DNA from: Candidatus Companilactobacillus pullicola | GTDB lineage: Bacteria > Bacillota > Bacilli > Lactobacillales > Lactobacillaceae | Direction of reading: 5' to 3' | Assembly: GCA_019116025.1 (NCBI GenBank) | Contig: DXCM01000080.1 | Location: 1-38,532 of the forward strand | Length of the DNA stretch: 38,532 bases | Part shown: positions 17,894 to 36,936 of the stretch, piece after piece | How the letters are laid out: every line of letters starts with the position of its first letter | Position numbering within the stretch: the first letter of the stretch is position 1 | Notes under the pieces: model-generated | Seen by the model: only the letters and a program-made list of their open reading frames with translations | Databases searched by the model: none | What the model was told of the DNA's origin: nothing | Position numbers and translations under genes: made by a program

Positions 17894-17948
17894 TAAAAAA
17901 ATCAGTGTTTCAACCCCTTTTTGAGGGTTGTTGCACTGATTTTTTTTG
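17894..17948. terminator. Bidirectional terminator between convergent genes
   Basis: AAAAAAATCAGTG pairs with CACTGATTTTTTT and an inner stem CAACCCC/GAGGGTTG strengthens it. It serves the GyrI-like gene and, on the minus strand, could end the C69 dipeptidase transcript after its family B repeat. Confidence 0.85.
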
Positions 17949-17965: not shown

Positions 17966-18035
17966 GTTAACCATGGTTCTATGTCTTATAGTTTTGTTTC
18001 TATTCATGGTTAACCATGGTTCTATGTCTTATAGT
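17966..18035. repeat. 27-bp perfect direct repeat at the distal end of repeat B1
   Basis: The segment beginning GTTAACCATGGTTCTATG is present identically at 17966-17992 and 18009-18035 with 16 bases between. The second copy is the distal edge of family B element B1. The first is a free-standing edge fragment, either from an earlier deleted element or from slippage. Confidence 0.85.
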
Positions 18036-18169
18036 GGAAACGAGCTACGCAAGGGCAACCTCCTGTGGTTTGCTACAGGACTGAAATTGCCCGCAAAGTA
18101 CGCGTGCGATTCCAGTCCTTAGGCAAATCCTCGGAGGATGGGCGCCCTTGCTTCGCTCTCTGCTCTCTA
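18009..18169 (-). repeat. Family B stop-anchored 3'-UTR element B1
   Basis: Read on the minus strand, the element starts with the dipeptidase stop codon (TAG, then AGAGCAGAGAGCGAAGC) and ends near AACCATGGTTAAC. A long-range stem GCAAGGGC/GCCCTTGC encloses CCTCC/GGAGG, then GGACTGGAAT/ATTTCAGTCC with an apical GC-rich loop. It is GC-richer than its surroundings. The same arrangement occurs after trxA, a VIT gene and the second dipeptidase. Confidence 0.87.
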
Positions 18170-19588
18170 TAGATTTGGATCCATCTTAAATGTTAACTTA
18201 CTTAGCTCTGTTCCTTGTGTAACTAAATCTCCTAAATGGGCTTTAGTAGCTTCGTTGAAGTGTTTAGCGATTTCTTTGTTCTGTTCTGTTAGATAGTCTG
18301 TTAAGGCTTCTCCTGACAGATTAAGAGCTTTCTCGTCTACTTCTGCTATCTTCTGGCATGCCCATTGTTCTAATTCTTTTTGATAGTCTAAATTAGGTTC
18401 TACAAATTCTTGATAGTGACTTTCTACTACGAATTCTAATGCTGTGTATAACCAATAAGCACTGTCCAAATTCATCTTCTCTGGTACAAAGCTGTATGAC
18501 TTGTCAATCGCATTGGCATTGGTAAAGAATGGCACATAGGCGCTAAAGCATGGCATCCCTAGTCCTTTCCACTCAATGGCTTGATTGCCTGTATCTGTAT
18601 CACGCATTTGCAAAATATGTGAATTCATTGTTCTGGATAAACAAATGGCACGATAGCGTTTTTTGTCTTCTTCACTGCCGCTACCCATGGGATCGAATTT
18701 TGTTTCATTATAGTGTGAAGCTAAAATAGCTTGGATATCTTCGACTGCAATCTTCTTTTCTGGTTTTCTCAGAAATGGTAGGTTCGAGGATTCGGGATCT
18801 TGTTCAACTGATGGATTCAACATTCTTTGACCGTACCAAACACGTGGTGTGTTGTAATGGCGGTCTTTTTTAGTATCTGTTCCAAAAATATGTCTGAAAT
18901 TCCAACTATCGAAGTCAGGATTTAAATTATTCTTGGTAACAAATTCTTGAATGCCATCAGACCACATATAATTTTCTGGATCAGAGAAATCAATTTCTTC
19001 AATACCAATTTGATTGGCAGCTACGGCATAAGAATCATCTGGGATACGGATTGCTACCCAATGGTGGCCTGTAGCAATTTCCATGTACCAAATATCATCT
19101 TTATCAAAGAATTCAACGCCATTACTCTCAGTTGAACCATATTTAGCAATCAAATTACCTAGGTACTCAACACCTTCACGTGCTGAATCAATGTATGGCA
19201 AAACTAAAGTAGTCATCGAATCTTCGGCCACACCGTTTTCAATCAAAGGATCATAGGCTAAAACTTTTTCATTGGCTGTCACACTTTCAGTGGCACTCAT
19301 TCCAACATTTTTTTCGTTGATACCATCCTCTTCATAATATCCCTCATCTTGGTTAGCATCTGGAGAAGTAGTATAACGATAGCCATTCTCTGGCAATTCA
19401 ACGGTCAACTTATTGTATGGTGAAACATAAGTTTCATGACGATTCTTAACCGCCTTTTGTACATAGAATTTCTTAGGCCAGTTAGCTACGAAATTGTCCT
19501 CATTACGAGCAATGTAATTAGATCCGTCAATTGAGGCCTTTTTACCAACCATAATCGAAGTACAGGCTGCATGTGTATGTCTTTTCAT
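18167..19588 (-). CDS. pepD: C69-family dipeptidase (PepD), paralogue 1
   Basis: A 473-residue Ntn-hydrolase dipeptidase. Its likely nucleophile is Cys9 in HAACTSIMVGKKASIDGSNY, normally exposed by removal of a short propeptide. The segment YIARNED, the central WYMEIATGHHWVAIRIPDD and C-terminal DYLTEQNKEIAKHFNEAT are typical of lactobacillar PepD. It hydrolyses dipeptides in the cytoplasm. I start at 19588 because GGAAGGA lies nine bases upstream; an in-frame ATG at 19606 is inside the ribosome site region. It is highly similar to the gene at 23137-24564, and both end KLTFKMDPNL immediately before a family B repeat. Confidence 0.92.
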   Translation of the reverse strand: MKRHTHAACTSIMVGKKASIDGSNYIARNEDNFVANWPKKFYVQKAVKNRHETYVSPYNKLTVELPENGYRYTTSPDANQDEGYYEEDGINEKNVGMSATESVTANEKVLAYDPLIENGVAEDSMTTLVLPYIDSAREGVEYLGNLIAKYGSTESNGVEFFDKDDIWYMEIATGHHWVAIRIPDDSYAVAANQIGIEEIDFSDPENYMWSDGIQEFVTKNNLNPDFDSWNFRHIFGTDTKKDRHYNTPRVWYGQRMLNPSVEQDPESSNLPFLRKPEKKIAVEDIQAILASHYNETKFDPMGSGSEEDKKRYRAICLSRTMNSHILQMRDTDTGNQAIEWKGLGMPCFSAYVPFFTNANAIDKSYSFVPEKMNLDSAYWLYTALEFVVESHYQEFVEPNLDYQKELEQWACQKIAEVDEKALNLSGEALTDYLTEQNKEIAKHFNEATKAHLGDLVTQGTELSKLTFKMDPNL

Positions 19589-19644
19589 TAATAAAATTCC
19601 TTCCATTAAAAAATTTTCTTATATAATAGTTTACTTCTGAATAA

Positions 19645-19677
19645 CTAAAAAAGCTGAAAGATTTACTCTTTCAGCTT
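19645..19677 (-). terminator. Terminator of the DUF6978/DUF1828 pair
   Basis: AAGCTGAAAGA-GTAAA-TCTTTCAGCTT followed by TTTTTAG begins five bases past the stop at 19682. The pepD promoter region (TATTAT just beyond) abuts it. Confidence 0.85.
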
Positions 19678-19681
19678 AATT

Positions 19682-20443
19682 TTATTTCAACATCATTATT
19701 TCTGATTTGTTTTCCCAAGGAATTAACCTCAAATCGTATTTTTCAGCTATATTCATACTTTTACGACTGGGACGAGACATTTGTGAATTATATATAATAA
19801 TAAACTCAGAATTACTTAAGTTATATTCCAAGCCATTTGAAATGTCCCCGTACATAGCTCCAGTCATTGCTATTGTAGAAAAAGAAGAAGTATTTGTGAA
19901 ATTAATGAATCTGAATGGACGATTTCCTTTTAAGGGGATAGTATAGTCCACCACGTAATTATTTCCGCTTTCTCCATAAGGTCTATAAGTCTTAAGTCCA
20001 CCAAAATCATTTTTTTCAAAAAATTGATAAACATCTGACTTAAAAAATCCTGAATATTTCTCCTGACGAGTCATCAATAAATCATCAATATGAATTATTG
20101 CTTGCATTAAACGTTGCTTCATATCTGGGAAATTCATTCTTTCTCCCACAACAAAAAGCTCTTTATCAACACATTGAACATTGTAATTTCTCAATATACT
20201 ATTTAAATATTTTTTTCGGGTTAAGGTATCAAAATTCATCCCCATCATTTCTAAATCGCCAATTGTGTCAAAATCATCGGTTAAAGTTATCGTTCCATCA
20301 GGATTTGAAGAGGCATAGATTGTTATATTATCACCTATTGAATTGGTAAATGGAGTTACTATTTCATCGCTACCATTTAGCTGTTCAATACGATATTGAC
20401 TTTTTAACCAATTCAAATAATTATCTATTAACGAAGAATCCAA
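19682..20443 (-). CDS. DUF1828/DUF1829 protein
   Basis: A 253-residue protein whose N-terminal third carries the DUF1828 pattern (DGTITLTDDFDTIGDLEMMGMNF, about 49-71). The C-terminal half (GNRPFRFINFTNTSSFSTIAMTG and later FIIIYNSQ) fits DUF1829. Both domains occur in bacterial and phage proteins of unproven function. The start is TTG at 20441-20443, nine bases after GGAGGG. That ribosome site lies inside the last codons of the upstream gene, two bases away, so the pair is translationally coupled. AT content is visibly higher than in neighbours, which suggests transfer. A toxin-antitoxin or defence role is a guess. Confidence 0.75.
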   Translation of the reverse strand: MDSSLIDNYLNWLKSQYRIEQLNGSDEIVTPFTNSIGDNITIYASSNPDGTITLTDDFDTIGDLEMMGMNFDTLTRKKYLNSILRNYNVQCVDKELFVVGERMNFPDMKQRLMQAIIHIDDLLMTRQEKYSGFFKSDVYQFFEKNDFGGLKTYRPYGESGNNYVVDYTIPLKGNRPFRFINFTNTSSFSTIAMTGAMYGDISNGLEYNLSNSEFIIIYNSQMSRPSRKSMNIAEKYDLRLIPWENKSEIMMLK

Positions 20444-20445
20444 TA

Positions 20446-20886
20446 TTATTCGCCCTCCTCTACAAAAACAACGTTATCCAGTTTAACTTTATTATAAATA
20501 AAAAATATTTCTAAATCTTTCTGAAAATCTAAAAAATCATTTGAAATTCTACCAAGTGGAAATGGAAGACTAGATTTCTCAATGAATTCACAGTCAAAAA
20601 TATTTTCAGAATTAAATATATGCAAGTGAGGAGTAGCGTATCCATGATGGGATTTACCTATAATATCAAACCTCATCATATTGCCTCCATCACTAGACCT
20701 GATCATCAAAGACAGTTTTTTCTTTTTATGTCCTTTGCAATTCATAATAACAGTAAATTTTTTATTTACATCAAATAAACCATGAGCAAAATAGCATTTC
20801 TGTTCATTAATACCTGCTAACCTCACTCTTGGCCTATTCAACACCTTATCCAACGTAAATAATTTATCATATGCATTTTTATCCAC
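20446..20886 (-). CDS. DUF6978-like protein, partner of the DUF1828 gene
   Basis: A 146-residue protein. The central segment KKKKLSLMIRSSDG ... MRFDIIGKSHHGYATPHLHIFN resembles the DUF6978 pattern (a leader-core ending in PHLHIY). Its two histidine motifs (KSHHG, PHLH) could bind metal or form an active site. It starts with GTG (20884-20886), seven bases after AGGAG, and ends two bases before its partner. Function unknown. It is AT-rich like its partner and lies between metabolic genes of ordinary composition. Confidence 0.65.
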   Translation of the reverse strand: MDKNAYDKLFTLDKVLNRPRVRLAGINEQKCYFAHGLFDVNKKFTVIMNCKGHKKKKLSLMIRSSDGGNMMRFDIIGKSHHGYATPHLHIFNSENIFDCEFIEKSSLPFPLGRISNDFLDFQKDLEIFFIYNKVKLDNVVFVEEGE

Positions 20887-20944
20887 AAGTAAACTCCTAA
20901 TTATGTTGACTTTAGGTACACATTAATAAATTACGTTTTTTATT

Positions 20945-21811
20945 TTATTCGCCAAAAATTTCTTTCTTCAATTTCAAAGCGGTTGGTGTTGTTGCCAATC
21001 CACCTTCGGCCGTCTCTTTGAAAATAGCAGGCATTTTTTGTCCAACTTGATGCATAGCTTCTACCACTTCATCAGTTGGTATCACACTTGTAATTCCTGC
21101 CAATGCCATATCAGCGGAGATCATTGCTTGAGAAGCTCCTAAAGCATTACGTTTAACACAAGGAACTTCTACTAGGCCAGCTACAGGATCACATACTAAG
21201 CCCATCATATTTTGCAAAGTTATTGAGATGGCTTCTGCGGCCATTTGTGCTGTCCCACCTTTAGCACACACAAGGGCAGCTGAAGCCATTGCGGCCGCAG
21301 ATCCTACCTCAGCTTGGCATCCACCTTCAGCACCAGCAATAGATGAGTTATTCGCGATTACCAATCCAAAAGCACCGGCTGTGAACAAAAAGTCGACTTG
21401 TTGCTCACGAGTTAAATGTAGACGATCTCTAGTTGCAACCAAAACTCCAGCCAATACCCCAGCACTACCTGCAGTCGGTGTAGCACAGATCAAACCCATT
21501 TTAGCGTTGACTTCGTTAACAGCAACCGCATTTCGAACGGCCTCCAAGATAGGTTCGCCACTTAAAAAGTCGCCCTTTTCAATATAGGAATTCATTTTCT
21601 TGGCATCGCCACCTGTTAAACCAGTTACTGATCTAACACCAGCAATACCTTCTTTAATTGAATTTTCCATAACTTCAAGGTTACGTTCCATCGTTGAACG
21701 GACGAATTCTTTACTACGGTCAGTATTCTTCATTTCTGTCTGTACCATTAAATCAGCAACAGAATCGTAATCTGCGCTTTGTTTGACTAATTCTTTAATT
21801 GTATAAAACAT
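20945..21811 (-). CDS. sdaAA: L-serine dehydratase, alpha subunit
   Basis: A 288-residue iron-sulfur subunit of the two-subunit L-serine dehydratase, which deaminates L-serine to pyruvate and ammonia. GLICATPTAGSAGVLAG (about 106-122), AGAEGGCQAEVG, LVCDPVAGLVEVPCVKRNA and the end GLATTPTALKLKKEIFG are all diagnostic. The cysteines in CATPTAGS, GGCQAE, VCDP and PCVKR include the cluster ligands. The ATG at 21809-21811 is chosen (AGGGG eight bases upstream) over an in-frame TTG at 21817. It follows the beta gene by 11 bases, so they form one operon. Confidence 0.96.
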   Translation of the reverse strand: MFYTIKELVKQSADYDSVADLMVQTEMKNTDRSKEFVRSTMERNLEVMENSIKEGIAGVRSVTGLTGGDAKKMNSYIEKGDFLSGEPILEAVRNAVAVNEVNAKMGLICATPTAGSAGVLAGVLVATRDRLHLTREQQVDFLFTAGAFGLVIANNSSIAGAEGGCQAEVGSAAAMASAALVCAKGGTAQMAAEAISITLQNMMGLVCDPVAGLVEVPCVKRNALGASQAMISADMALAGITSVIPTDEVVEAMHQVGQKMPAIFKETAEGGLATTPTALKLKKEIFGE

Positions 21812-21822
21812 CAGCAATACCC

Positions 21823-22494
21823 CTATTCAAAATATGTGGCACTATCAACATTTGGTAATGCACGTAATTTTTGTAAAATTTCATCTCGTTGACGACGTTC
21901 ATCGACTTCAATAATCATGATGGCTTTCTCACCCTTTGAAGCTCTGGTAACTGTCATCGTACCGATATTGATATTGAGATTAGAGAAAACATCTGTGACT
22001 TTAGCAATCATTCCGGAAACATCTTGATGGACTGTAATATAGGTTGGTGTGCCCAAGCTAAGTGACATCTTAAAACCATTGATTTCTGAAATTTGAATAT
22101 TTCCTCCACCAATCGAAACACCCGTCACAGTCAGGTTATGATCACCTTTTACTAATTTTATTTTGGCCGTATTGGGATGGTCCACTTCCTTACTTTCAGG
22201 AACAAAAGCGACTTTTATACCTTTTTCATAAGCTATTTTCAAAGAATCAGACAGTCTCTCATCATCTGGTTCCATGCCTAAGAGTCCACCAACTAGGGCG
22301 ATGTCAGTTCCATGTCCACGATAAGTCTTTGCGAATGATTCATATAAATGAATAGTTACTTTTTCAGGTTTCTCACCAAAAATGTCATGAACAACCTTAC
22401 CAATTCTGGCTGCACCGGCAGTATGTGAACTGCTGGGGCCCACCATAACTGGACCAATTATATCGAAAACACTTTTAAAACGTAATTCTGTCAT
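21823..22494 (-). CDS. sdaAB: L-serine dehydratase, beta subunit
   Basis: A 223-residue partner subunit. FDIIGPVMVGPSSSHTAGAARIG (about 10-32) is the family signature, and residues about 150-220 (YITVHQDVSGMIAKVTDVFSNLNINIGTMTVTR) form an ACT domain likely to bind serine. It is translated first, with sdaAA 11 bases downstream. Together they feed serine carbon to pyruvate, consistent with a peptide-using organism. AGAGGTAACCC lies before the ATG. Confidence 0.95.
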   Translation of the reverse strand: MTELRFKSVFDIIGPVMVGPSSSHTAGAARIGKVVHDIFGEKPEKVTIHLYESFAKTYRGHGTDIALVGGLLGMEPDDERLSDSLKIAYEKGIKVAFVPESKEVDHPNTAKIKLVKGDHNLTVTGVSIGGGNIQISEINGFKMSLSLGTPTYITVHQDVSGMIAKVTDVFSNLNINIGTMTVTRASKGEKAIMIIEVDERRQRDEILQKLRALPNVDSATYFE

Positions 22495-22588
22495 TTGGGT
22501 TACCTCTGATTAACTGTATTATTTATAAGTTTACAATTTTTATTTAATATATTCACCCTATTTAACTAATGAACGATTATTTATAGAC

Positions 22589-22626
22589 ACAAAAAAACGG
22601 CAAATGCTGCAACATTTGTCGTTTTT
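22589..22626 (-). terminator. Intrinsic terminator upstream of sdaAB
   Basis: AAACGGCAAATG/CATTTGTCGTTT with A/U tracts on both sides. It lies downstream of the second dipeptidase and its family B array on the minus strand, so it probably ends that transcript. It could also sit in an sdaAB leader. 22627-22813 has no recognisable feature. Confidence 0.75.
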
Positions 22627-22813
22627 CCATTTTGTAAATAGAATCGTTATTTTCACTTTATTGATTTCTTATAGAGTTTTACTTGTTAATATTTTTTTAT
22701 TTTGGATTGAAGGATTGATATATTATGGACTTTTTGTCGGGATTCTTTTTTGCTCTTGTTGAAATCAATAACGTTTTTTGGATTGCTATTTTTTAGTTCT
22801 GCTTTCTATTCTA

Positions 22814-23139
22814 ATGAACCATTGTTCTCTGCTGAATAGTGGAAACGAGTTCCACAGGCCAGATTCCTGTGCTTTGCCTGACTTCACGAACTGCCTGCTT
22901 CGCAGTCAATTCGCAAAGTCCTGCAAATGCTCAGAATCTATGCAGTCCTGTTCCACTCTCTATCTGAAACGAGCTACGCAGGGGCAACCTCCTGTGGTTT
23001 GCTCTTTATCTGAAATGAGCTGCGTGAGGGCAACTCCTTCCGGTTAAGTCAACTTTCTCTGCCGGCACTTCGTTGCCGACTGAGAAAGTAGTCTTAATCC
23101 TCGGGAGCTGGGCGCCCTCACTACGCTCTCTGCTCTCTA
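22814..23139 (-). repeat. Family B stop-anchored element array B2 (three units)
   Basis: Read from the dipeptidase stop codon (CTC TAG, then AGAGCAGAGAGCG), unit B2c (about 23010-23139) is followed by a partial unit B2b (about 22964-23009) and a full but divergent unit B2a (about 22814-22961) ending AACCATT. Junctions are marked by repeats of TATCTGAAA(C/T)GAGCT. B2c has its own hairpin AACTTTCTC/GAGAAAGT where B1 has another, so inner modules differ while the borders are conserved. Confidence 0.82.
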
Positions 23140-24564
23140 GAGATTTGGATCCATCTTGAATGTTAACTTACTTAACTCTGTTCCTTGTGTAACCAAATCT
23201 GCTAGATGTTTCATTGTCTCTTCATTGTAATGTTTTACAATTTCATGGTTTTGCTCTGTTAGATAATCTGTTAGAGCTTCTCCTGTCATTGTCACGGCTT
23301 TTTCATCAACTGCAGCAATCTTTCTTCTTGCCCATTCTGATAATGCTTTTTGATAATCTAAGTTTGGTTCTACGAATTCCTTATAGTGACTTTCTACTAC
23401 CATTGCTAAGGCTTCATACATCCAGTATGCACTCTTTAGATCCATCTTTTCTGGTGTGTAACTGTATGATTCGTCGATATCGTTGGCATTTGTAAAGAAT
23501 GGTACTTGTGGGCAGAAGCTTGGAATTCCGAATCCTGTCCATTCTACTCCGGCTGCTCCGTTCTTATCTGAATCTCTCATTTGAAGAATATGTGAGTTAG
23601 CTGTACGTGACAATGAAATAGCACGATATGTCTTCTTGTCATGTTCACTACCACTGCCTAGTGGATCATACTTTGTTTCATTATAGTGTGATTTCAATAG
23701 ATATTGGATGTCTTCTACGGCAATCTTCTTTTCAGCTTTTCTAATAAATGGAAGTTCTGCTGACTCTGGATCTTGCTCATCTGAAGGGTTCAAGTAACGT
23801 TGTGCAAACCATACACGTGGTGTGTTGTAATGGTGATCTTTTTCTGTATCTGTACCAAAGATATGTCTGAAGTCCCAACGATCAAAGTCAGGGTTCAAAT
23901 TATGTTCTGATACGAATTCTTGAATGCCATCGGACCACATGTAGTTGTCAGGATCATTGAAGTCAATATCTTGAATTGCTACTTGGTTTGCAGCAACGGC
24001 ATAACAATCGTCTGGAATACGTACGGCTACCCATTGGTGTCCTGTTACTACTTCCATGTACCAAACTTCATCTTTATCGTTGAATTGAAGTCCGTTACCT
24101 TCAGCAGAACCATATTTAGCAACTAATCTACCAAGATATTTAACACCATCACGTGCTGAATTAATGTATGGCAATACCAAGGTTGCAAGTGAATCTTCAG
24201 CTAAACCATTTTTTACATATGGATCAAAAGCAAGAACTTTTTCATTAGCATAAACACTCTCAGTTGCGCTCATACCAACGTTCTTTTCGTTGAATCCATC
24301 TTCTTCGTTAGGACCAGTACTTTGGTCAGCATCAAGAGTTGATGTGTAACGATAACCATTTTCAGGATAAGGTGCTGTCATCTTGTTGTATGGTGAAACA
24401 TAAGTTTTGTCACGGCCTGAAACAGCAGGTTGAACGATAATACGTTTTCTATAAATAGCATTCAAACGGTCTTCGTTTCTTGAAATATAAGTTGCTCCAT
24501 CCATTGAAGCCTTCTTACCAACCATGATTGATGTACATGCTGATAATTCAATACGATCTGTCAT
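23137..24564 (-). CDS. pepD: C69-family dipeptidase (PepD), paralogue 2
   Basis: A 475-residue Ntn-hydrolase with the nucleophile cysteine in LSACTSIMVGKKASMDGATY near residue 10. YISRNED, WYMEVVTGHQWVAVRIPDD and DYLTEQNHEIVKHYNEET match its paralogue at 18167-19588 almost throughout. I start at 24564 (MTDRIEL), six bases after GGGGGAT, rather than at 24579, which overlaps that site. It follows a PqqD-like gene and an OPT transporter on the same strand. The operon would therefore import peptides and cleave dipeptides. The final codons lead straight into a family B array. Confidence 0.92.
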   Translation of the reverse strand: MTDRIELSACTSIMVGKKASMDGATYISRNEDRLNAIYRKRIIVQPAVSGRDKTYVSPYNKMTAPYPENGYRYTSTLDADQSTGPNEEDGFNEKNVGMSATESVYANEKVLAFDPYVKNGLAEDSLATLVLPYINSARDGVKYLGRLVAKYGSAEGNGLQFNDKDEVWYMEVVTGHQWVAVRIPDDCYAVAANQVAIQDIDFNDPDNYMWSDGIQEFVSEHNLNPDFDRWDFRHIFGTDTEKDHHYNTPRVWFAQRYLNPSDEQDPESAELPFIRKAEKKIAVEDIQYLLKSHYNETKYDPLGSGSEHDKKTYRAISLSRTANSHILQMRDSDKNGAAGVEWTGFGIPSFCPQVPFFTNANDIDESYSYTPEKMDLKSAYWMYEALAMVVESHYKEFVEPNLDYQKALSEWARRKIAAVDEKAVTMTGEALTDYLTEQNHEIVKHYNEETMKHLADLVTQGTELSKLTFKMDPNL

Positions 24565-24606
24565 TTTAATATCCCCCATTAATAAAAATTTTTAATTATT
24601 TAATAA

Positions 24607-24963: not shown

Positions 24964-24979
24964 TTTCATCGCCCCTTAC

Positions 24980-27698: not shown

Positions 27699-27734
27699 AA
27701 AAAAATACCCTATGAATTTAAAATCCATAGAGTA
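27699..27734 (-). terminator. Terminator of the cellobiose operon
   Basis: TACTCTATG and CATAGGGTA form a stem, with extra pairing inside, followed by seven U residues on the minus strand, 26 bases beyond the EIIC stop. Confidence 0.82.
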
Positions 27735-27759
27735 TAAATTAAGTGACTATAATATCTAA

Positions 27760-29079: not shown

Positions 29080-29115
29080 ACTTTCGCCCCCGAAAAAGTT
29101 TTTTAACTTAGATAC

Positions 29116-30498: not shown

Positions 30499-30518
30499 TT
30501 TTTTCACCCCACGTTTTT

Positions 30519-30559
30519 TGAATACGTTTACAGTATACAATATTTTTTAATTATGTAAA
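30519..30559 (-). promoter_or_regulatory. Promoter and cre box of the cellobiose operon
   Basis: TTTACA (30554-30559), a 16-base spacer and TATACT (30532-30537) form the promoter. A cre-like box TGTAAACGTATTCA (30519-30532) directly abuts the -10 and matches TGWNANCGNTNWCA at all but one defined position. CcpA bound here would block transcription when preferred sugars are present. Confidence 0.82.
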
Positions 30560-30572
30560 CACTTTCTTTTAA

Positions 30573-30588
30573 AAAAGTATATACTTTT
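30573..30588. promoter_or_regulatory. Palindromic operator of the divergent GntR regulator
   Basis: AAAAGTATATACTTTT is a perfect 16-base palindrome 13 bases upstream of the cellobiose operon -35 and about 70 bases before the gntR start codon. Its placement between divergent promoters makes it the probable site of the adjacent HutC-type regulator. Confidence 0.65.
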
Positions 30589-30656
30589 AAAATAAAGCGA
30601 AAAACTTTTATTTTCATGCTAAACTTAGGGCGAAGAGAGTTTTAGGAGAGAAAATC

Positions 30657-31382
30657 ATGGCTTACAAATATAAAGAAGTCGCTGACGACTTAAGAAATAA
30701 GATCAACTCTGGGAAATATGCACCTGGGGAATTGATGCCCGATCAAAATCAAATTGCAGCAGATTATAATACAACCAGAATCACTGTTCACAAGGCCCTT
30801 CAGCTTTTAATGGTTGAAGGTATGGTCTATTCAAAACGTGGATCTGGAACATTTGTTAGAAAAGACTACAGTCCTGAAAAGAATTCTAGTAAGTTTGGAA
30901 AAGTATCTCCCATTGACAAACCTTTTGGAGCTACCTTAACTAATCAGGGCAAAAAAGTTACTAGTAAAGTATTGGAATTATCGGCTCGCATCCCTACTAC
31001 TAAGGAAGCTGATCAACTCATTATTCCTCCAACAGAACCTGTTTATGTCATTCGTCGTGTTCGTTTTGTTAATGGCGAAGTTTTTGCCTACGAGCACACA
31101 ATTATGCCTACCTCCATCACAACCCTAACTAAAGAAGTCCTAGAGGGTTCTATCTATGGTCATCTTCAAGAAGATGGATTGAGTATTGAAGGATCACATA
31201 GAATCATTAGTGCTGGAGCTGCTGATGATGAGGACGTTAAAAACGGTATTGCCAGTAAAGTTGGCGAGCCTGTTTTAGTTATCAAACAGCTGAGTTATCT
31301 AGATGACGGTCAACCATTTGAAATTTCTGAATCACGTTTTCCATATAAGACTAGTGAATTAACAGCCGATATCACACTATAA
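30657..31382 (+). CDS. GntR/HutC-family regulator of the cellobiose operon
   Basis: A 241-residue regulator. The N-terminal wHTH ([43 protein letters not shown], about 26-68) is followed by a UTRA effector domain from about 90 (VYVIRRVRFVNGEVFAYEHTIMPTSI). AGGAG lies ten bases before the ATG, and an extended -10 (TGCTAAACT, ending 30625) precedes it. Its divergent placement beside the GH1/EIIC operon and the intervening palindrome imply control of beta-glucoside use, probably responding to a sugar phosphate. Confidence 0.91.
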   Translation: MAYKYKEVADDLRNKINSGKYAPGELMPDQNQIAADYNTTRITVHKALQLLMVEGMVYSKRGSGTFVRKDYSPEKNSSKFGKVSPIDKPFGATLTNQGKKVTSKVLELSARIPTTKEADQLIIPPTEPVYVIRRVRFVNGEVFAYEHTIMPTSITTLTKEVLEGSIYGHLQEDGLSIEGSHRIISAGAADDEDVKNGIASKVGEPVLVIKQLSYLDDGQPFEISESRFPYKTSELTADITL

Positions 31383-31384
31383 GA

Positions 31385-31436
31385 AAAAGCCAGTACAACA
31401 ACCATGAACTTATGGTTGCCATACTGGCTTTTTTCA
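31385..31436. terminator. Bidirectional terminator
   Basis: AAAAAGCCAGTA and TACTGGCTTTTTT with an inner CAACCAT/ATGGTTG stem separate the convergent gntR and LCP genes. Confidence 0.9.
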
Positions 31437-31440
31437 ATTT

Positions 31441-32463
31441 CTAATATGTGCTATTTGTATAATGCGTTGTATCTAAGCCAAACGTATCATAATCAATATC
31501 ATCTTCGTCAGCGAAGAATTTTTTATTTTTAGCATTTAATTTTGTTTCTGTATTATTTAGAGTCTTAGGTTCCAATCCTAAGTTATCTCTTAAGTTATTA
31601 GAAGCATTTTGCATAGTTGAGGTTGGCAAAATTTGATAAGAACTTTGATTGATCCAGGCTGTCTTACCTTGAATCTGGTTGAAGTCCATGTTGTCAGCAC
31701 TGCTATGATATTTCATGACAATTTCATTGATTTCTTTTGAAGTTAAATCGGTACTTATATCTTTACCCAAATCTTTAATTAAATCAGGAATCTTAACTAA
31801 ATATTGTGGAGACTCCAACTTCTTAACAACTGCTTTCAAAACTTGTTGCTGTCTAATTTGACGTCCGTAGTCGCCACGTGGATCTTGATAACGCATTCGA
31901 GCGTATGTTAGAGCTTCTTTACCATTTAAATGATGAGTTCCCTTGGGAATCGTTACCCCATCAAAGGAAACTTTCAAATCACTTTTAACAGTCACACCAC
32001 CAACAAAATCAACGGTCCGTTTCAAAGCATCCATATTGATTGCGACGTGATAGTCGACAGGAACACCTAATAAACTACCGACAGTATCCTTGGCCATATC
32101 CGACAGGCCAATATTGTATGCCGCATTTATTTTTTGAACGTTCTTTTGCTTATCACCGACCATTTCTGCCAATGCATCACGAGGAATTGAGTAAGCTACC
32201 GTATTCTTTTTCTTCGGATTCAAAGTCAACAACATCATGGTATCTGAATTACCACGATCCACACGACCGTCGGCTCCCGTATCAGCCCCCAAAAGTAGGA
32301 TTGAGAATGGCTTACCCTGACTGATTTTCTTAGAGACACTAGTCTTATTCGTATCTAACGAATTCAGTGCTTGTTGCGTCCGATAAACAAATACTCCCCC
32401 TATTGCTAGAATGATGACTAGGATTATACCTATAATAATAGAAAATATTTTTAGTTTTTTCAT
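31441..32463 (-). CDS. LytR-CpsA-Psr (LCP) family protein
   Basis: A 340-residue membrane-anchored protein: a short basic N-terminus, one membrane helix (about 5-27), then an extracellular LCP domain with ILLLGADTG, RGNSDTMMLLTLNP, AYSIPRD, KINAAYN and the arginine-rich segment ALTYARMRYQDPRGDYGRQIRQQQVL. LCP proteins transfer wall polymers such as teichoic acids or capsule from lipid carriers to peptidoglycan. A TATAAT at 32492-32497, with TTGGCG 18 bases upstream, fits a promoter. The C-terminal tail is acidic and polar. Confidence 0.93.
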   Translation of the reverse strand: MKKLKIFSIIIGIILVIILAIGGVFVYRTQQALNSLDTNKTSVSKKISQGKPFSILLLGADTGADGRVDRGNSDTMMLLTLNPKKKNTVAYSIPRDALAEMVGDKQKNVQKINAAYNIGLSDMAKDTVGSLLGVPVDYHVAINMDALKRTVDFVGGVTVKSDLKVSFDGVTIPKGTHHLNGKEALTYARMRYQDPRGDYGRQIRQQQVLKAVVKKLESPQYLVKIPDLIKDLGKDISTDLTSKEINEIVMKYHSSADNMDFNQIQGKTAWINQSSYQILPTSTMQNASNNLRDNLGLEPKTLNNTETKLNAKNKKFFADEDDIDYDTFGLDTTHYTNSTY

Positions 32464-32616
32464 TTTTTTACCTTAAATTTTATTATTTTCCATTATAAAA
32501 CGAATCAACTGCTGTCGCCAATTTTTTAAAGGTGTTCAATTCAACCGATATCGCTTCCAAATTGACTACGTTAATGTTAGTCTCAGGTTAGAAAAAACTT
32601 TAGGGGAAGTGATCTT

Positions 32617-33105
32617 ATGCCAAAGATGGCTGAAGCACTTTTAGTTATAGATATGCAAAAAGCTCTCCAATATAGTTACAATTTTAACGACTTAATTAAC
32701 AATATTGATCATCGAATTTCGGAATATCGTCAAGCTAATCTACCAATTATTTTCATCCAACACCACGATCAAGACTTAGAACGTGATACTGATTTGTGGA
32801 AATTATCTGACAAATTGGATAGAAAAGATGACGACACAGTTATTGAGAAAACTCATCCTGATGCCTTTTATAAAACGAACTTAAAAGATGTCCTTAATGA
32901 AAATGGCATCAAGACTCTTGAGATTTGCGGAGCCCAGACAGAATATTGTTGTAACGCAACGATTACCGTGGCTCATGATTTAGGTTACAAGATAATTATG
33001 GAACACGACATGACGACTACTTTTGATAATAATTATATGATTGCCGAAGATACTATTTCGTTCTTCGAAAATACTTGGGATCAAAAGTACGTAGCTTTCC
33101 AGTAA
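32617..33105 (+). CDS. Isochorismatase-like cysteine hydrolase
   Basis: A 162-residue hydrolase with the family triad: Asp12 (LLVIDMQ), Lys78 (VIEKTHPDAFYKT) and the nucleophile Cys111 (GAQTEYCCNAT), followed by the helix ITVAHDLGYK. Family members hydrolyse nicotinamide, isochorismate or N-carbamoyl compounds. The short length and absence of a recognised metal site argue against a definite nicotinamidase call. AGGGGAAG precedes the ATG. The gene stands alone between terminators. Confidence 0.87.
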   Translation: MPKMAEALLVIDMQKALQYSYNFNDLINNIDHRISEYRQANLPIIFIQHHDQDLERDTDLWKLSDKLDRKDDDTVIEKTHPDAFYKTNLKDVLNENGIKTLEICGAQTEYCCNATITVAHDLGYKIIMEHDMTTTFDNNYMIAEDTISFFENTWDQKYVAFQ

Positions 33106-33151
33106 AAAAGAAGAGACAGGTACATAACTAATACCTTGTCTCTTCTTTTTT
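33104..33151. terminator. Bidirectional terminator
   Basis: AAAAAAGAAGAGACA and TGTCTCTTCTTTTTT with an inner GGTA/TACC form a strong stem between the convergent hydrolase and hypothetical genes; it touches both stop codons. Confidence 0.9.
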
Positions 33152-33419
33152 ATGCATATGTAGCATTGCTATGGATCAATTCATAACCATTCAAGTTCAA
33201 TCTGCCTAAAACTTGATTAATGGTATCATCTGGAAATGCTGCTTCAGGTTTTTTAACTAGATAAAATTTCGATAGATCATCCGCATCTATCCAGCGTCCT
33301 AATCTGGTTAGTTCTGAATACTGCTTTGGATCGAATTCAACTGAGCGTCCAAAATCAATAGTAATGATTTCACCCTCAAACCAACTGATTCGTCCAACTG
33401 TCTTTGGTACACCATCCAT
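33150..33419 (-). CDS. Hypothetical 89-residue protein
   Basis: A small soluble protein beginning MDGVPKTVGRISWFEGEIITIDFGR and ending GRLNLNGYELIHSNATYA. The N-terminal part looks like an SH3-like beta-barrel (short strands with a GxIxxFEGExITIDFG pattern). GGGATG precedes the ATG by seven bases. A cre-like TGTAACCGTTTTTC lies at about 33446. I do not recognise a family. Confidence 0.7.
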   Translation of the reverse strand: MDGVPKTVGRISWFEGEIITIDFGRSVEFDPKQYSELTRLGRWIDADDLSKFYLVKKPEAAFPDDTINQVLGRLNLNGYELIHSNATYA

Positions 33420-33545
33420 TATTCATCATCCCTTTGAATAAATTATGTAACCGTTTTTCTATATGACAATATACCACGTTTCAGTTAGTAATTACGGTCA
33501 AATTCGAAGTATTCGTGATTATTTGAACGAATATACTAAATATCT

Positions 33546-34100
33546 TTATGCATTCTTCAAACTCGAGAAATCACCCATAAAAGTATTGATCTCTTTGACA
33601 GCTTTTTCCTTATCATAAGCATAATCTCTGGCAGCGTTTAAATAAATTTGTTTGCCATCTGTAGTTGTAATTTCAATTCCGACAGGATTCTTCATCATTG
33701 ATAAACGTGAATAGAAAATACTGTAAGCATTGGAAAATGGAACCATCGAAGGAAGTTGGGTTTGATCTTGAATATTTCCCATTAATTGAACAGACTTTAT
33801 CTGTTCCTTTTTTATTGTCTCCATTTTTGCAAAGCTGGGGAAAAATATCATACTTACACGTTTAGCTGGACTTGCCATATTATTATATTCAAGTTTCTCC
33901 CCATCGAATTGCCAATAACTAAATAATGCAGGCAATTCTGAATAATAATGAGCAAATATAATACTAAAGAAACAAAGACCAACGAAAAGTCCAATCAGAC
34001 CATTTCCAGAGATGGCATAAGCTGCATTTCCTGGAATAAATCCGATAAGTAAACTAATCAATAATGGTCTAAAATTAACTTTCTTACCAAATTGCATCAT
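33546..34100 (-). CDS. Hypothetical membrane protein, PH-like C-terminus
   Basis: A 184-residue protein with two membrane helices (about 11-30 and 36-52, including LFVGLCFFSIIFAHYYS). A cytoplasmic domain follows with strands YWQFDGEKLEYNN, VSMIFFPSFAKMETIKKEQIKSVQLM and VGIEITTTDGKQIYL, suggestive of a bacterial PH-like fold. Two adjacent ATGs (34100, 34097) follow GAGG. A perfect cre palindrome and an extended -10 TATAAT lie just upstream. Role unknown; it may be a stress- or sugar-regulated membrane protein. Confidence 0.72.
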   Translation of the reverse strand: MMQFGKKVNFRPLLISLLIGFIPGNAAYAISGNGLIGLFVGLCFFSIIFAHYYSELPALFSYWQFDGEKLEYNNMASPAKRVSMIFFPSFAKMETIKKEQIKSVQLMGNIQDQTQLPSMVPFSNAYSIFYSRLSMMKNPVGIEITTTDGKQIYLNAARDYAYDKEKAVKEINTFMGDFSSLKNA

Positions 34101-34148
34101 AGTGATCGCCTCTTGCTGTTTTTACGAGATCATTATAGCACCAGTCTT

Positions 34149-34162
34149 TGTAATCGATTACA
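34149..34162. promoter_or_regulatory. cre box upstream of the PH-like membrane protein
   Basis: TGTAATCGATTACA is a perfect palindrome that fits the cre consensus TGWNANCGNTNWCA fully. It lies about where the -35 of an extended -10 promoter (TGC-TATAAT, about 34130-34138) would be, so CcpA would repress. Confidence 0.7.
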
Positions 34163-34208
34163 ATTAACTTTTGATTTATTTTTACGTGCCAAGTATAGAC
34201 ATTAGAGC

Positions 34209-34245
34209 AAAAAAAATAGACAAATCCGCCTACTGATTTGTCTAT
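34209..34245 (-). terminator. Terminator downstream of trxA and repeat B3
   Basis: ATAGACAAATC-N8-GATTTGTCTAT is a perfect 11-bp stem followed by eight U residues on the minus strand. It ends the trxA transcript about 290 bases past the stop codon, with the family B element in between. 34246-34341 is otherwise empty. Confidence 0.88.
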
Positions 34246-34341
34246 ACTTTGTTGCTTTATATTCGTCTATTATTTAGTGTATTTCTTATTTTTTATTGGT
34301 TTAACAATTTTTTTAGGAGGGATTGGAGCCTCTGATTGGAA

Positions 34342-34500
34342 TAACCATTGTTCTATGCAATATAGTGGAAACGAGCTGCGTAAGGGCAACCTCCTGTGGT
34401 TTGCTACAGAACTGAAATTGCCCGCAAAGTACGCGTGCGATTCCAGTTCTTAGGCAAATCCTCGGAGGCTGGGCGCCCTTACTACGCTCTCTGTTCTCTA
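34342..34500 (-). repeat. Family B stop-anchored 3'-UTR element B3
   Basis: Starts with the trxA stop codon (ATG TAG, then AGAACAGAGAGCG) and ends near AACCATTG with CATAGAACAATGG. The long stem GTAAGGGC/GCCCTTAC and the inner CCTCC/GGAGG and AGAACTGGAAT/ATTTCAGTTCT stems are intact. It is very similar to B1, with paired substitutions in the outer stem. Confidence 0.87.
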
Positions 34501-34821
34501 CATATACTTTTCCAATTCCAAACGGAACTTCTCTTCTGGTTGATAACCAACCATGCGTCCTACTACGTTACCATCTTTCTTGATGATAAATGTAGGGATT
34601 CCTTGGATTCCAAAATTATTTGGTGTATCTGGATTGTGATCTACGTTCATTGATGTAAACTTGATCTTATCACCTAACTCATCTGTTGATGATAACTTTT
34701 CAAGAATTGGGTTCATCATTTTACATGGAGGACACCAGTCTGCATTAAAATCTGTAATGACTAGGCCTTTGTTGGTCTCGTCATTGAATGTCTTGTCTGA
34801 TAATTCTGTAATATTAGCCAT
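34498..34821 (-). CDS. trxA: Thioredoxin
   Basis: A 107-residue thioredoxin with active site WCPPCK (about 29-34, instead of WCGPC), the cis-proline in GIPTF and the C-terminal FRLELEKYM. It reduces protein disulfides in the cytosol. WCPPC is a known variant that shifts redox potential. AGGAG lies eight bases before the ATG at 34819-34821; a second ATG three bases earlier is possible. It has a promoter whose spacer is a CsoR-type palindrome and is divergent from a CsoR-family gene. This suggests a specialised, metal- or sulfur-stress thioredoxin rather than the housekeeping one. Confidence 0.93.
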   Translation of the reverse strand: MANITELSDKTFNDETNKGLVITDFNADWCPPCKMMNPILEKLSSTDELGDKIKFTSMNVDHNPDTPNNFGIQGIPTFIIKKDGNVVGRMVGYQPEEKFRLELEKYM

Positions 34822-34853
34822 CATTCAATCTCCTTCTCATCTCTATGTATTTC

Positions 34854-34882
34854 AATATACCCCTAGGGGTAATATTTGGCAA
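34854..34882 (-). promoter_or_regulatory. trxA promoter with CsoR-type operator in the spacer
   Basis: TTGCCA (34877-34882), 17-base spacer, TATATT (34854-34859). The palindrome TACCCCTAGGGGTA (34858-34871) fills most of the spacer and overlaps the -10 by two bases. Such C/G-run palindromes are typical of CsoR/CstR/RcnR operators, so binding should exclude RNA polymerase. Confidence 0.82.
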
Positions 34883-34926
34883 CAATTTTGTTTTATTAGT
34901 ATTTATAAGAAAAATAATGTAATTAT

Positions 34927-34955
34927 TTGCCACCCGGTACCCGCATAGGTATAAT
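34927..34955 (+). promoter_or_regulatory. Promoter and operator of the CsoR-family gene
   Basis: TTGCCA (34927-34932), 17-base spacer and perfect TATAAT (34950-34955). TACCCGCATAGGTA (34938-34951), a degenerate version of the trxA palindrome, sits at the same place and overlaps the -10 by two bases. The geometry mirrors the trxA promoter exactly. Confidence 0.75.
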
Positions 34956-34986
34956 TGCTATATGAAATCTATTTGGGAGGTTACTA

Positions 34987-35256
34987 ATGACTCAAACGCC
35001 CGAAGAAATTGCTAGTAAAAAAATCACTAGTCGTCTTAAACGTTCTCGTGGTCAACTCGATGCTGTGCTTCGAATGATGGACGACGGTAAGCCTTGTGAT
35101 CAGGTCTTAATGCAATTATCTGCCGTTAAATCAAGTGTTGATAAAGCCATGAAACTGGTTATGGCTCAAAACATTCGTCGCAACAGTAATTGTCAAGATG
35201 CCCAACAATTAGAAGAATTACAAAAATCATTGGACTTAATGTTAAAGACTAAATAG
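34987..35256 (+). CDS. CsoR/CstR-family metal- or persulfide-sensing repressor
   Basis: An 89-residue all-helical repressor of the DUF156 family: RLKRSRGQLDAVLRMMDDGKPCDQVLMQLSAVKSSVDKAMKLV. Cys37 is the conserved first cysteine. The second cysteine, Cys69, lies in NIRRNSNCQ, about three residues beyond the usual place, and the Cu(I)-ligand histidine of true CsoR is missing. This looks closer to CstR-like thiol sensors than to copper sensors, but the offset leaves function open. Divergent from trxA with matching operators, it probably represses both. Confidence 0.87.
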   Translation: MTQTPEEIASKKITSRLKRSRGQLDAVLRMMDDGKPCDQVLMQLSAVKSSVDKAMKLVMAQNIRRNSNCQDAQQLEELQKSLDLMLKTK

Positions 35257-35275
35257 TCAGCGAACAATTTTATTA

Positions 35276-35314
35276 AAATAACCTGTGTCTTAATTGGCAC
35301 AGGTTATTTTTTAC
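35276..35314. terminator. Bidirectional terminator
   Basis: AAAATAACCTGTG and CACAGGTTATTTTTT form a stem between the convergent CsoR-family and desulfidase genes. Confidence 0.88.
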
Positions 35315-36582
35315 TTATTCATCATAATATTCAAAATCACAGGATCAGTTTCTTTTAATCCTTCTGTTCCCAGTACTCCTAGTCCTTGAATCGTTGCATC
35401 TATATCATCGCAAACCAAGCCGTTACTAGAAGGGATTACAATACCTTTTCTAGCCAATTGTGTTGCTCGATACATTGAAGAAACTGCGCTGGCCACTTTC
35501 ATTGCACATGAACAACCGGCACCGTCACAAACCATTCCTACGGAATCACCAACCATATTCTTTATTGCCATACAGGCTGCTTCATAATCATCTTCTAACA
35601 AATACATTACTCCAGCTGCTGCTCCCATGGCAGCCGAATCAGCTGCACAAAACGCTGATAGCACTGGCAAAAAAGCATGGATATAAATTGCAGTCAAATG
35701 TGATAATGTCAGAGCTCTAATTAATTTTTCATCATTAACATCTAGATTCTGTGCTACGACCCAGACTGGCATTGTTGCAGAAATACCTTGATTACCGGAA
35801 CCAGAATTGGACATTGCTGGCAACGTTGCTCCACCCATTCTGGCATCCGAGGCCGCTACTGTATAAGTTAAGATCTGATTGTCTAACGTTCTATTATCAT
35901 TGATCAGTGAACATCCCAATTGCAGACCATATTTATTATGTAGACCCTCATCAGATAAGGCTACATTTAAATCGGCCGCCTGTTTCATAAAGCCTATTTT
36001 GTCGATCGGTACGTTTGTAGCAAAGTCCCAAATATTTTTGAATTTTTCAGTCTGCATATAAAGTTTAATTTCTGATTTAGCATGTGGTGCGGGAGGATCT
36101 TTTTTAAAAATAACTTCCCCATTCTTCTCAATACGGAAAATATTTGTATGATCACCAGCTATCCATACTTGGACGTTTTCAGACCCACTTGTTATTTTCA
36201 CATCTACATATAAGTCATCCGGAACCTGAGCTAGCCTAACCTGTACTTTTCCGGAATAAGCTAATCGTTTAATCTCTGGAATATCATCTTGCGTTATACC
36301 TGCGATTACTTTTAGTTTGGCCTCTGGATCTCCTATCAGAGCCCCTGCAGATGCAGCTATTTGCAATCCTGGTTCTCCCGTACCAGGAACGATTACAGCT
36401 GTCGCATTCTTCATAATATTTAATGAGACATTGACCTCAATTTTATCCACAACCCCATCGGATAAATACTTCATACAATTCGCAGCTCCATATGCAACTG
36501 CCACCGGTTCTGTACAGCCTGTAGCTGGAACTACGCCTTCATGTAATGCTTGGATAAATTTTTCAGTACTTTCTTCATTCAT
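35311..36582 (-). CDS. cyuA: L-cysteine desulfidase / serine dehydratase-like protein
   Basis: A 423-residue protein of the UPF0597/CyuA (YhaM) family. It has TGCTEPVAVA with Cys23 near the N-terminus and the cysteine-rich CDGAGCSCAMK near residue 355, expected ligands of a [4Fe-4S] cluster. MGGATLPAMSNSGSGNQGISATMPV is diagnostic. Family members convert L-cysteine to pyruvate, ammonia and hydrogen sulfide. A perfect cre box adjoins a TATACT -10 upstream. Its convergent neighbour is a CsoR/CstR-like repressor with thioredoxin, which could cope with the sulfide or persulfide made here. Confidence 0.9.
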   Translation of the reverse strand: MNEESTEKFIQALHEGVVPATGCTEPVAVAYGAANCMKYLSDGVVDKIEVNVSLNIMKNATAVIVPGTGEPGLQIAASAGALIGDPEAKLKVIAGITQDDIPEIKRLAYSGKVQVRLAQVPDDLYVDVKITSGSENVQVWIAGDHTNIFRIEKNGEVIFKKDPPAPHAKSEIKLYMQTEKFKNIWDFATNVPIDKIGFMKQAADLNVALSDEGLHNKYGLQLGCSLINDNRTLDNQILTYTVAASDARMGGATLPAMSNSGSGNQGISATMPVWVVAQNLDVNDEKLIRALTLSHLTAIYIHAFLPVLSAFCAADSAAMGAAAGVMYLLEDDYEAACMAIKNMVGDSVGMVCDGAGCSCAMKVASAVSSMYRATQLARKGIVIPSSNGLVCDDIDATIQGLGVLGTEGLKETDPVILNIMMNK

Positions 36583-36635
36583 AATTAAAACCCCGCATTC
36601 TAATTATTTTCGACCTGTCATACCAAAAATATCTT

Positions 36636-36654
36636 TGTAACCGTTTACAGTATA
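36636..36654 (-). promoter_or_regulatory. -10 and cre box of cyuA
   Basis: TATACT (36649-36654) is followed immediately by TGTAAACGGTTACA (36636-36649), which meets the cre consensus at all defined positions. The same -10/cre arrangement precedes the cellobiose operon. No clear -35 is seen. Confidence 0.78.
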
Positions 36655-36696
36655 ACAACTATGTGATTCTTTTAACACAGTCTTGGCTTAATATAC

Positions 36697-36747
36697 TAAA
36701 AATAGGATGGAAACCTCAGAGTAAAAATCTGAATTCCATCCTATTTC
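36697..36747 (-). terminator. Terminator downstream of the VIT operon
   Basis: AAATAGGATGGAA pairs with TTCCATCCTATTT, with an inner CAGA/TCTG, followed by U-rich sequence on the minus strand. It lies about 190 bases past the VIT stop, beyond repeat B4. Confidence 0.85.
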
Positions 36748-36779
36748 TTCATTTATTTGTTGTATTTTCTATTTTTAAT

Positions 36780-36936
36780 AACCATGGTTCTATGCAATAT
36801 AGTGGAAACGAGCTGTGCAGGCCAATTTCCTATGGTTTGCTACAGATCTGAAATCATCCGCAAGTTCGGCGGATAATTCCAGGTCTTAGGCAAATCCTCG
36901 GAAATTCCCAGGCCTGCTTCGCTCTCTGCTCTCTTA
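36780..36936 (-). repeat. Family B stop-anchored 3'-UTR element B4
   Basis: Starts at the VIT gene stop codon (TTG TAA, then GAGAGCAGAGAGCGAAGC) and ends near AACCATGGTTATT. The outer stem is GCAGGCC/GGCCTGC where B1 has GCAAGGGC/GCCCTTGC, and TTTCC/GGAAA replaces CCTCC/GGAGG, so both arms changed together. The apical stem is TTATCCGC/GCGGATGA. Confidence 0.87.

What the first reader, a model, noticed from the sequence alone, without database searches (positions are those of the whole stretch)
17966..36936. Family B: structured repeats anchored exactly at stop codons
Seen: four loci (18009-18169, 22814-23139, 34342-34500, 36780-36936) where a conserved element begins at the stop codon of a minus-strand gene, reading TAG-AGAGCAGAGAGCG or TAA-GAGAGCAGAGAGCG. 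All four lie between stop and terminator, so all are in 3' UTRs. The hosts are unrelated (two C69 peptidases, trxA, VIT). Random intergenic insertion would not give zero- or one-base spacing four times. Inference: either a mobile element that targets stop codons, or a 3'-UTR regulatory or stabilising RNA that travels with gene ends.
Basis: partly seen in the sequence, partly recalled or inferred. Interest (0 to 1): 0.82.

Follow-up and report, generated by a model that had tools for sequence, protein, structure and literature searches.

The report
Hairpin repeats anchored at stop codons
In this lactic acid bacterium at least 66 copies or small arrays of an RNA-hairpin repeat are found, and most start almost exactly at the stop codons of unrelated genes, often supplying the stop codon itself; related repeats occur in many lactobacilli, which makes them a good test case for how a DNA repeat comes to sit where translation ends.

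Summary
The window (a Companilactobacillus contig) has four copies at the stated stop codons. A covariance model gives 77 tabulated sense copies in 66 arrays in this genome; 58 of 66 arrays start within -8..+9 nt of the stop of an ORF of 100+ codons on the same strand, 26 at offset 0. The first bases, TAG, usually are the stop codon. In 17 of 17 host genes the element-free orthologue of one relative ends at the same residue, mostly with TAA. The hairpin shows strong covariation; G-U outnumbers A-C 7:1 on the sense strand. A terminator-like hairpin follows 50 of 58 anchored arrays. 35 of 36 Companilactobacillus and 88 of 251 sampled Lactobacillaceae genomes match; no Rfam family does. It works like pneumococcal BOX and GTAG-REP elements but fails two defining REP features, and neither Y1 nor DDE_3 transposases accompany it regularly. 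Many orthologous copies are remnants, so it looks like a tolerated, formerly spreading element rather than an indispensable regulator. Outside the genus anchoring is looser (13 of 26 by the same rule). How it reaches stop codons, and its effect on translation or mRNA, are inferred.

The parts
18010..18169 (-). single-unit element; TAG (18169-18167) is the stop codon of the C69 dipeptidase gene, hairpin, then tail CACTATAAGACATAGAACCATGGTTA
   Evidence: z -6.65; 177 bits
17967..18009 (-). second tandem copy of the about 43-nt tail
   Evidence: (D9)
17894..17944 (-). terminator-like hairpin with T-run downstream of the element
   Evidence: limits read by eye; a terminator for this array was detected
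18167..19606 (-). host gene, C69 family dipeptidase
23011..23139 (-). array, unit 1 (hairpin type with GGATTAAGACTACTTTCTCAG...); TAG is the stop codon of the second C69 gene
22963..23008 (-). array, truncated middle unit (3' arm only)
   Evidence: (D7)
22814..22962 (-). array, last unit with tail
   Evidence: 110 bits
23137..24579 (-). host gene, C69 family dipeptidase (paralogue)
34341..34500 (-). single-unit element; TAG (34500-34498) is the stop codon of the thioredoxin gene
   Evidence: 180 bits
34210..34245 (-). terminator-like hairpin with T-run
   Evidence: limits read by eye; a terminator for this array was detected
34498..34824 (-). host gene, thioredoxin (trxA-like)
36778..36936 (-). 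single-unit element; follows TAA (36936-36934), the stop codon of the VIT-family gene
   Evidence: z -5.99; 162 bits
36698..36748 (-). terminator-like hairpin with T-run
   Evidence: limits read by eye; a terminator for this array was detected
36934..37635 (-). host gene, VIT family protein

Best explanation
A non-coding, probably non-autonomous palindromic repeat family of Lactobacillaceae. One unit is about 125 nt: TAGAG, a long imperfect hairpin with internal loops, then CGTTT. In Companilactobacillus the last unit carries a 3' tail (CACTATnnnnCATAGAACCATGGTTA). Units occur singly or in tandem. Shown: most copies in this genome sit in sense orientation with their 5' edge at a stop codon, usually providing it as TAG; host protein ends do not change; a terminator-like hairpin usually follows; copies decay and change by internal deletion, and at one plasmid locus by unit loss and swapping of the hairpin interior. 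Inferred: insertion occurs at a TA dinucleotide in or just after the stop codon (TAA becomes TAG), by an unidentified enzyme that recognises the folded ends; transcribed copies form a hairpin whose base a terminating ribosome must open, so they are tolerated there and probably slow termination and shield the mRNA from 3'-to-5' decay. I put 0.6 on the core ('formerly spreading, tolerated, stop-codon-anchored repeat') and about 0.3 on the predicted effect on termination or decay.
For: Anchoring: 58 of 66 arrays; stops TAG 48, TAA 9, TGA 1; 42 read TAGAG. 33 of 40 loci in five other Companilactobacillus genomes (30 within -8..0, L216 at -16, L215 and L220 through the first unit of an array). TAG at hosts 48 of 58 against 21 of 70 other mechanical ORF ends of 150+ codons (Fisher 2e-9). 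For 17 host genes, G000 stops are 14 TAG and 3 TAA; the element-free orthologues in G004 are 14 TAA, 2 TAG, 1 TGA. All 17 proteins end at the same residue in G004, and 10 of 10 in G003 (the orthologues were found by C-terminal similarity, which favours conserved ends). First dinucleotide before GAG: TA in 47 of 66 arrays. Structure: 97.4% of cells paired, covariation 0.619 against 0.214 shuffled, 40 of 40 pairs with some double change; G-U 257 and A-C 36 cells, 20 against 5 columns, 115 distinct rows. Terminator within 150 nt after 50 of 58 arrays and 34 of 69 control gene ends (Fisher 1e-5). Decay: remnants at orthologous stops. Dynamics: seven L. plantarum plasmid records share the celB 3' end and the element's outer ends, but five carry a different hairpin interior from the other two, and one keeps a unit joint so that the next unit's TAG is the in-frame stop.
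Against: No insertion with clean flanks and a target-site duplication was found; in the two most similar genomes compared, all nine tested sites held an element, a remnant or (L364) at least a TAGAGA stub. In one of these nine (L347/L362) the protein end is not conserved, because the gene reads into the element. No partner enzyme: PF01797 is one partial broken copy in G000 and absent from G002, G003, G004, G006 and G008, but present in G001, G005 (fragment) and G007; PF13358 occurs in 1 of 36 genomes; other transposase families were not searched. Anchoring is weaker outside the genus (12 of 26 within 2 nt, 13 by the -8..+9 rule). Eight of 66 own arrays are not anchored. Internal loops kept open and occupation of the same gene ends in several species (trxA, segs 1, 3, 8, 12, 17) could mean host selection. 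There are no expression data, so transcription is inferred.
Confidence: 0.6

Rival explanations
1. A host-maintained 3'-UTR regulatory RNA: the hairpin directly after the stop codon is selected because it tunes termination, ribosome recycling or mRNA stability.
For: Sense orientation and near-zero spacing; strong covariation with a sense-strand G-U bias; the CTA/GTA internal loop stays open in the 24 aligned copies although a small change closes it, as in plasmid copy L305; the same gene ends are occupied in more distant congeners with different hairpins.
Against: None of 17 host genes has it in G004 and none of 10 in G003; remnants and losses at orthologous sites in the C. paralimentarius and C. 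kimchii genomes; no shared function of hosts was seen; at celB the interior differs between strains.
Confidence: 0.25
2. Random insertion plus purifying selection or spacer deletion: elements land anywhere, and mainly those abutting stop codons survive.
For: Selection against insertion in genes and promoters is expected; 50 of 58 are before terminators; eight own copies lie elsewhere.
Against: It does not explain why only two own arrays (C20:11625, C53:15233) start between 10 and 150 nt after the best upstream stop with an ORF of 80+ codons, since a 3' UTR should tolerate such copies; the copies most alike in sequence are already at stops.
Confidence: 0.12
3. A member of the GTAG-REP/RAYT system or an IS630-type MITE.
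For: Palindromic, multicopy, TAG at the end supplying stop codons as reported for GTAG REPs (PMC3733652, passages); TA before the 5' end in 47 of 66 arrays.
Against: Much longer than 20-40 bp REPs; the base before TAG varies; no intact Y1 and no DDE_3 transposase found in the own genome.
Confidence: 0.08

Closest known systems
BOX elements of Streptococcus pneumoniae (PMC3049150, passages seen)
   Same: Modular 5'-internal-3' build with a variable number of internal tandem units and an RNA-like fold; in the passage seen, 36 of 58 CDSs that overlap BOX do so at their extreme 3' end, with BOX encoding the stop codon and no strong evidence of truncation.
   Different: Different bacterial family; BOX sequences were not compared here. 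Stop anchoring is near-complete here (58 of 66 arrays), and units, not only an end module, typically start with TAG.
GTAG-tagged REP elements with RAYT transposases (PMC3733652, abstract and passages seen)
   Same: Extragenic palindromes next to 3' ends of genes; termini often supply TAG stop codons; plausibly transcribed.
   Different: REPs are 20-40 bp; these units are about 125 nt with internal loops and a separate tail; no intact Y1 gene in the own genome.
E. coli REP sequences close to stop codons that lower translation (Liang, Rudd and Deutscher 2015; recalled, not found in the listings)
   Same: Hairpin within about 15 nt of the stop codon; suggested ribosome effect.
   Different: Effect not tested here; unrelated size (recalled) and sequence not compared.
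Stem-loops near stop codons in low-GC Firmicutes (PMC1590033, passages seen)
   Same: Stable stem-loops enriched right after stop codons.
   Different: Those were described as mostly AT-rich and terminator-like; this is a repeat family usually placed before a separate terminator.

Membership tests
S. pneumoniae BOX | boxA-(boxB)n-boxC sequence modules | not tested
   no BOX sequence was fetched or compared; the order-wide search does not name genomes
S. pneumoniae BOX | modular build with variable numbers of internal tandem units | tested here: met
   tandem units with one 3' tail in the window; 11 of 66 own arrays hold two model matches
GTAG REP / RAYT | 20-40 bp palindrome tagged GTAG | tested here: not met
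   unit about 125 nt; base before TAG is variable
GTAG REP / RAYT | associated Y1 (RAYT) transposase | tested here: not met
   one partial broken PF01797 match in G000; none in five of eight congeners searched (G002, G003, G004, G006, G008), which have 51, 4, 14, 48 and 64 model matches
MITE of an IS630-type element | DDE_3 transposase in the same genome or genus | tested here: not met
   1 of 36 genomes; other transposase families were not tested
MITE of an IS630-type element | TA target duplication | tested here: inconclusive
   TA before the 5' end in 47 of 66 arrays and GGTTA at 46 of 55 listed 3' ends, but no clean empty/filled pair
known Rfam RNA family | match to a covariance model | tested here: not met
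   no gathering match for the window or for five loci; three hits with E 1.6-3.9 around copy 1, none over the hairpin on its strand
intrinsic terminator | short GC-rich hairpin directly followed by a T-run | tested here: not met
   the hairpin ends in CGTTTCCACTAT without a long T-run; a separate terminator-like hairpin follows 50 of 58 anchored arrays
integron attC site | integron integrase and cassette array | not tested
   no integrase search was made

The most novel reading that the evidence does not exclude
An unknown transposition or recombination process places this element by sensing where translation, or a transcript, ends: at in-frame stop codons in sense orientation, and, as rare exceptions, right after the T-run of T-box and other terminators. 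It would be a mobile element targeted to the ends of expressed units rather than to a DNA sequence.
Probability: 0.18. Interest if true: 0.9.

Novelty: new variant of a known kind. Interest (0 to 1): 0.62.

Why it matters
Many lactobacilli may carry structured RNA at the very point where ribosomes terminate. That gives a natural series of genes with and without a strong hairpin at the stop codon, so the effect of such hairpins on termination, trans-translation and mRNA decay becomes directly testable in food bacteria. It also poses a clean question: how can a repeat reach stop codons so precisely? The listings of my searches showed no description in lactobacilli; the library searched is open-access and lacks most subscription journals.

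Tried and rejected
Y1/RAYT and IS630 (DDE_3) partner searches gave no regular partner. Target-site duplication: 17 host genes in up to four relatives and nine more in C. kimchii and C. paralimentarius gave no clean filled/empty pair; the sites filled only in G000 (segs 2, 4, 6) have flanks too diverged. A search for tails gave 52 matches; I did not sort out those away from hairpins. Phage records: no match. The orthologous-versus-non-orthologous hairpin identity test was mixed: median 0.76 against 0.69. Of its 33 extracted sequences, seg 3 G028, seg 12 G014 and seg 16 G014 are not real hairpins and spoil four of the 20 orthologous pairs, and seg 4 G000 over-ran; so I conclude only that seven pairs are alike (0.83-0.97) and several others no more alike than unrelated pairs. 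The first terminator scan was too strict (36 of 58 and 26 of 67) and was replaced by one allowing longer loops, with shuffles (50 of 58, shuffled 0; controls 34 of 69, shuffled 5).

Rows dropped: of 115 model matches in G000 I tabulated 77; 35 were weaker antisense shadows of palindromes already listed and three were weak independent matches (C96:73307, C42:31933, C79:16068). Only 150 of 678 first-look candidates were scored, so the copy number is a lower bound. The wobble count left out the 19 lowest-scoring of 140 rows, nearly all antisense shadows. Loci sampled in relatives and other genera were taken from the listed, best-scoring matches, not at random.
Full report
Observation. The window is contig C56 of a 2.93-Mb draft genome, G000, 99.43% complete with 8.2% contamination. 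Its thioredoxin is 98% identical to those of Companilactobacillus paralimentarius and C. kimchii. Hosts are two Peptidase_C69 paralogues, a thioredoxin and a VIT-family protein. Three of the four copies have a terminator-like hairpin within 150 nt.

Anatomy. The minus-strand unit reads TAGAG, then a long hairpin, then CGTTT; the last unit ends in CACTATnnnnCATAGAACCATGGTTA. In the window the copy at 22814-23139 is an array of a full, a truncated and a third unit. Three copies were folded singly and fold far better than shuffles. On 24 copies, 21 of 40 pairs have compensatory double changes. On 140 matches (131 distinct, the 19 lowest-scoring nearly all antisense shadows), 97.4% of cells pair and the covariation score is 0.619 against 0.214 in shuffles and at most 0.091 when slid; this alignment was fitted to the model, which leans towards it. 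On 115 distinct rows of the upper 121, G-U cells number 257 and A-C cells 36, which points to the sense strand as the one that folds. In the 24 aligned copies an internal loop CTA against GTA is kept open, and a second one near GA; other hairpin types in the arrays have other loops.

Position. In G000 a covariance model gives 77 tabulated sense matches, grouped into 66 arrays. In 58 of 66 the array starts -8..+9 nt from the stop of an ORF of at least 100 codons on the same strand; 26 have offset 0 and 42 read TAGAG at the stop. Stops are TAG 48, TAA 9, TGA 1. The eight others: two directly follow a terminator T-run (C20:11625, C62:68245), the second after a T-box leader (Rfam T-box, E 1.9e-16, 74 bits against a gathering score of 93); one has its host reading 29 nt into the element; the other five lie upstream of genes or are unclear. 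In 40 loci of five other Companilactobacillus genomes, 33 abut a stop (30 within -8..0, L216 at -16, L215 and L220 through the first unit of an array), seven do not. Three convergent gene pairs (C5, C31, C34) carry one anchored element per gene facing the other. For 56 of the 58 anchored arrays the first stem base lies 1-9 nt after the stop codon; in the other two the stop is inside the stem, so a terminating ribosome would have to open the stem base (inference).

Empty and filled sites. Of 27 thioredoxin loci (L063-L089; L085-L089 are only 54-59% identical and not counted further), four of 22 carry the element, all after TAG; by eye three carry other hairpins at the stop and two carry other palindromes. 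For 17 further host genes, G028 (C. kimchii) has model hits at 10 of 16, G014 (C. paralimentarius) at 10 of 17, G004 at 0 of 17 and G003 (C. formosensis) at 0 of 10; several hits are tail or arm remnants only. All 17 proteins end at the same residue in G000 and in the element-free G004 orthologue, and 10 of 10 in G003 (host genes were chosen with the stop at -8..0 and found by C-terminal similarity). Stops in G004 are TAA 14, TAG 2, TGA 1, against TAG 14, TAA 3 in G000. So the element arrived at the stop codon without changing the protein. In nine more genes compared between C. kimchii and C. paralimentarius, no clean empty site was seen: one side often kept only a mini-hairpin, an arm or a TAGAG stub, and in one gene (L347/L362) the protein end itself differs. 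Loss by deletion is thus common, and recent gain was not caught.

Strain-level dynamics. Seven L. plantarum plasmid records carry the celB 3' end, nearly identical, with the element at its stop (six with celB annotated, L311 with only the end); the same gene end with an element occurs in C. kimchii. Two records carry one hairpin interior and five another between nearly identical outer ends. One record retains a unit joint upstream of a TAG, so the next unit's TAG became the in-frame stop. Two records have lost the first TAG and stop nine nt later inside the stem. This is what gain and loss of tandem units would produce; it is one locus.

Distribution. 35 of 36 Companilactobacillus genomes, G000 included, match at E <= 1e-4. 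88 of 251 sampled family genomes in 16 of 40 genera match at E <= 1e-5, own genus included, with strict filters and at most 12 candidates scored each. In an order-wide draw 11 of 246 match, two of them in another family. In 26 loci from other genera and that second family, taken from the best-scoring matches, 12 start within 2 nt of a stop, 13 meet the -8..+9 rule (L325 has its stop inside the unit), four more are at -9, at -15 or reach the stop through an array (L333, L303), and nine are not anchored. Outside the genus the claim is therefore weaker. L340, from the second family, has a unit directly after a terminator T-run downstream of a T-box-like leader (motif recognised by eye); G014 and G028 have one at the locus that matches the G000 T-box copy.

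Mechanism. Shown: location, orientation, structure, stop supply, decay and modular change. Inferred: insertion into or beside the TA of a stop codon, because TA precedes the element's GAG in 47 of 66 arrays and filled sites have TAG where empty ones mostly have TAA. The enzyme is unknown; Y1 and DDE_3 transposases are not regular companions. A role in translation or mRNA decay is plausible from position and the recalled E. coli REP work, but untested. Occupation of the same gene ends in more distant congeners (trxA; segs 1, 3, 8, 12, 17) can be old insertion with turnover, repeated insertion, or selection; I cannot separate these.

Known relatives in kind. [quoted passage not shown] So stop-supplying palindromic repeats are a known kind. 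What differs here is size, structure, the near-complete anchoring in sense orientation in this genome, the TAG at the start of most units, the lack of a known transposase, and the host group.

Noticed in passing
window 487-693, 5466-5674, 5922-6109, 11904-12380: A second, unrelated-looking palindromic repeat family (GTCCTCCG...GGAATGC / GAACGC...GGGCCG, and ...GTCGTTCGTAGAAAATCTGTGGGCC) recurs in the window; by eye, similar sequence sits in relatives at 3' UTRs where the stop-anchored element is a remnant or lost (L369, L242).
   Followed up: no
L068 and L080, directly after the thioredoxin gene: Two Companilactobacillus species have yet another long palindromic repeat at the same gene end (by eye), suggesting that this 3' UTR hosts several repeat families.
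   Followed up: no
L304 and L305, celB element of two plasmids: The two copies differ in the hairpin by GTAGC against TAGGC, the change that makes the 3' arm a perfect complement of the 5' arm there, as template switching in a DNA hairpin would do.
   Followed up: partly
L040 1284-1500, L345, L358, L340: Copies begin within a few bases of the T-run of a T-box-type terminator in three Companilactobacillus genomes and in a genome of another family; only the first was checked against Rfam.
   Followed up: partly
G000 C5:27518, C66:135283; L361, L363: Minimal hairpins of about 30-60 nt (AGAGCGAAGCAGGCC/TGCGTAGCTCGTTTC and like) at stop codons, apparently left after deletion of the hairpin interior, recur at several loci.
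   Followed up: partly
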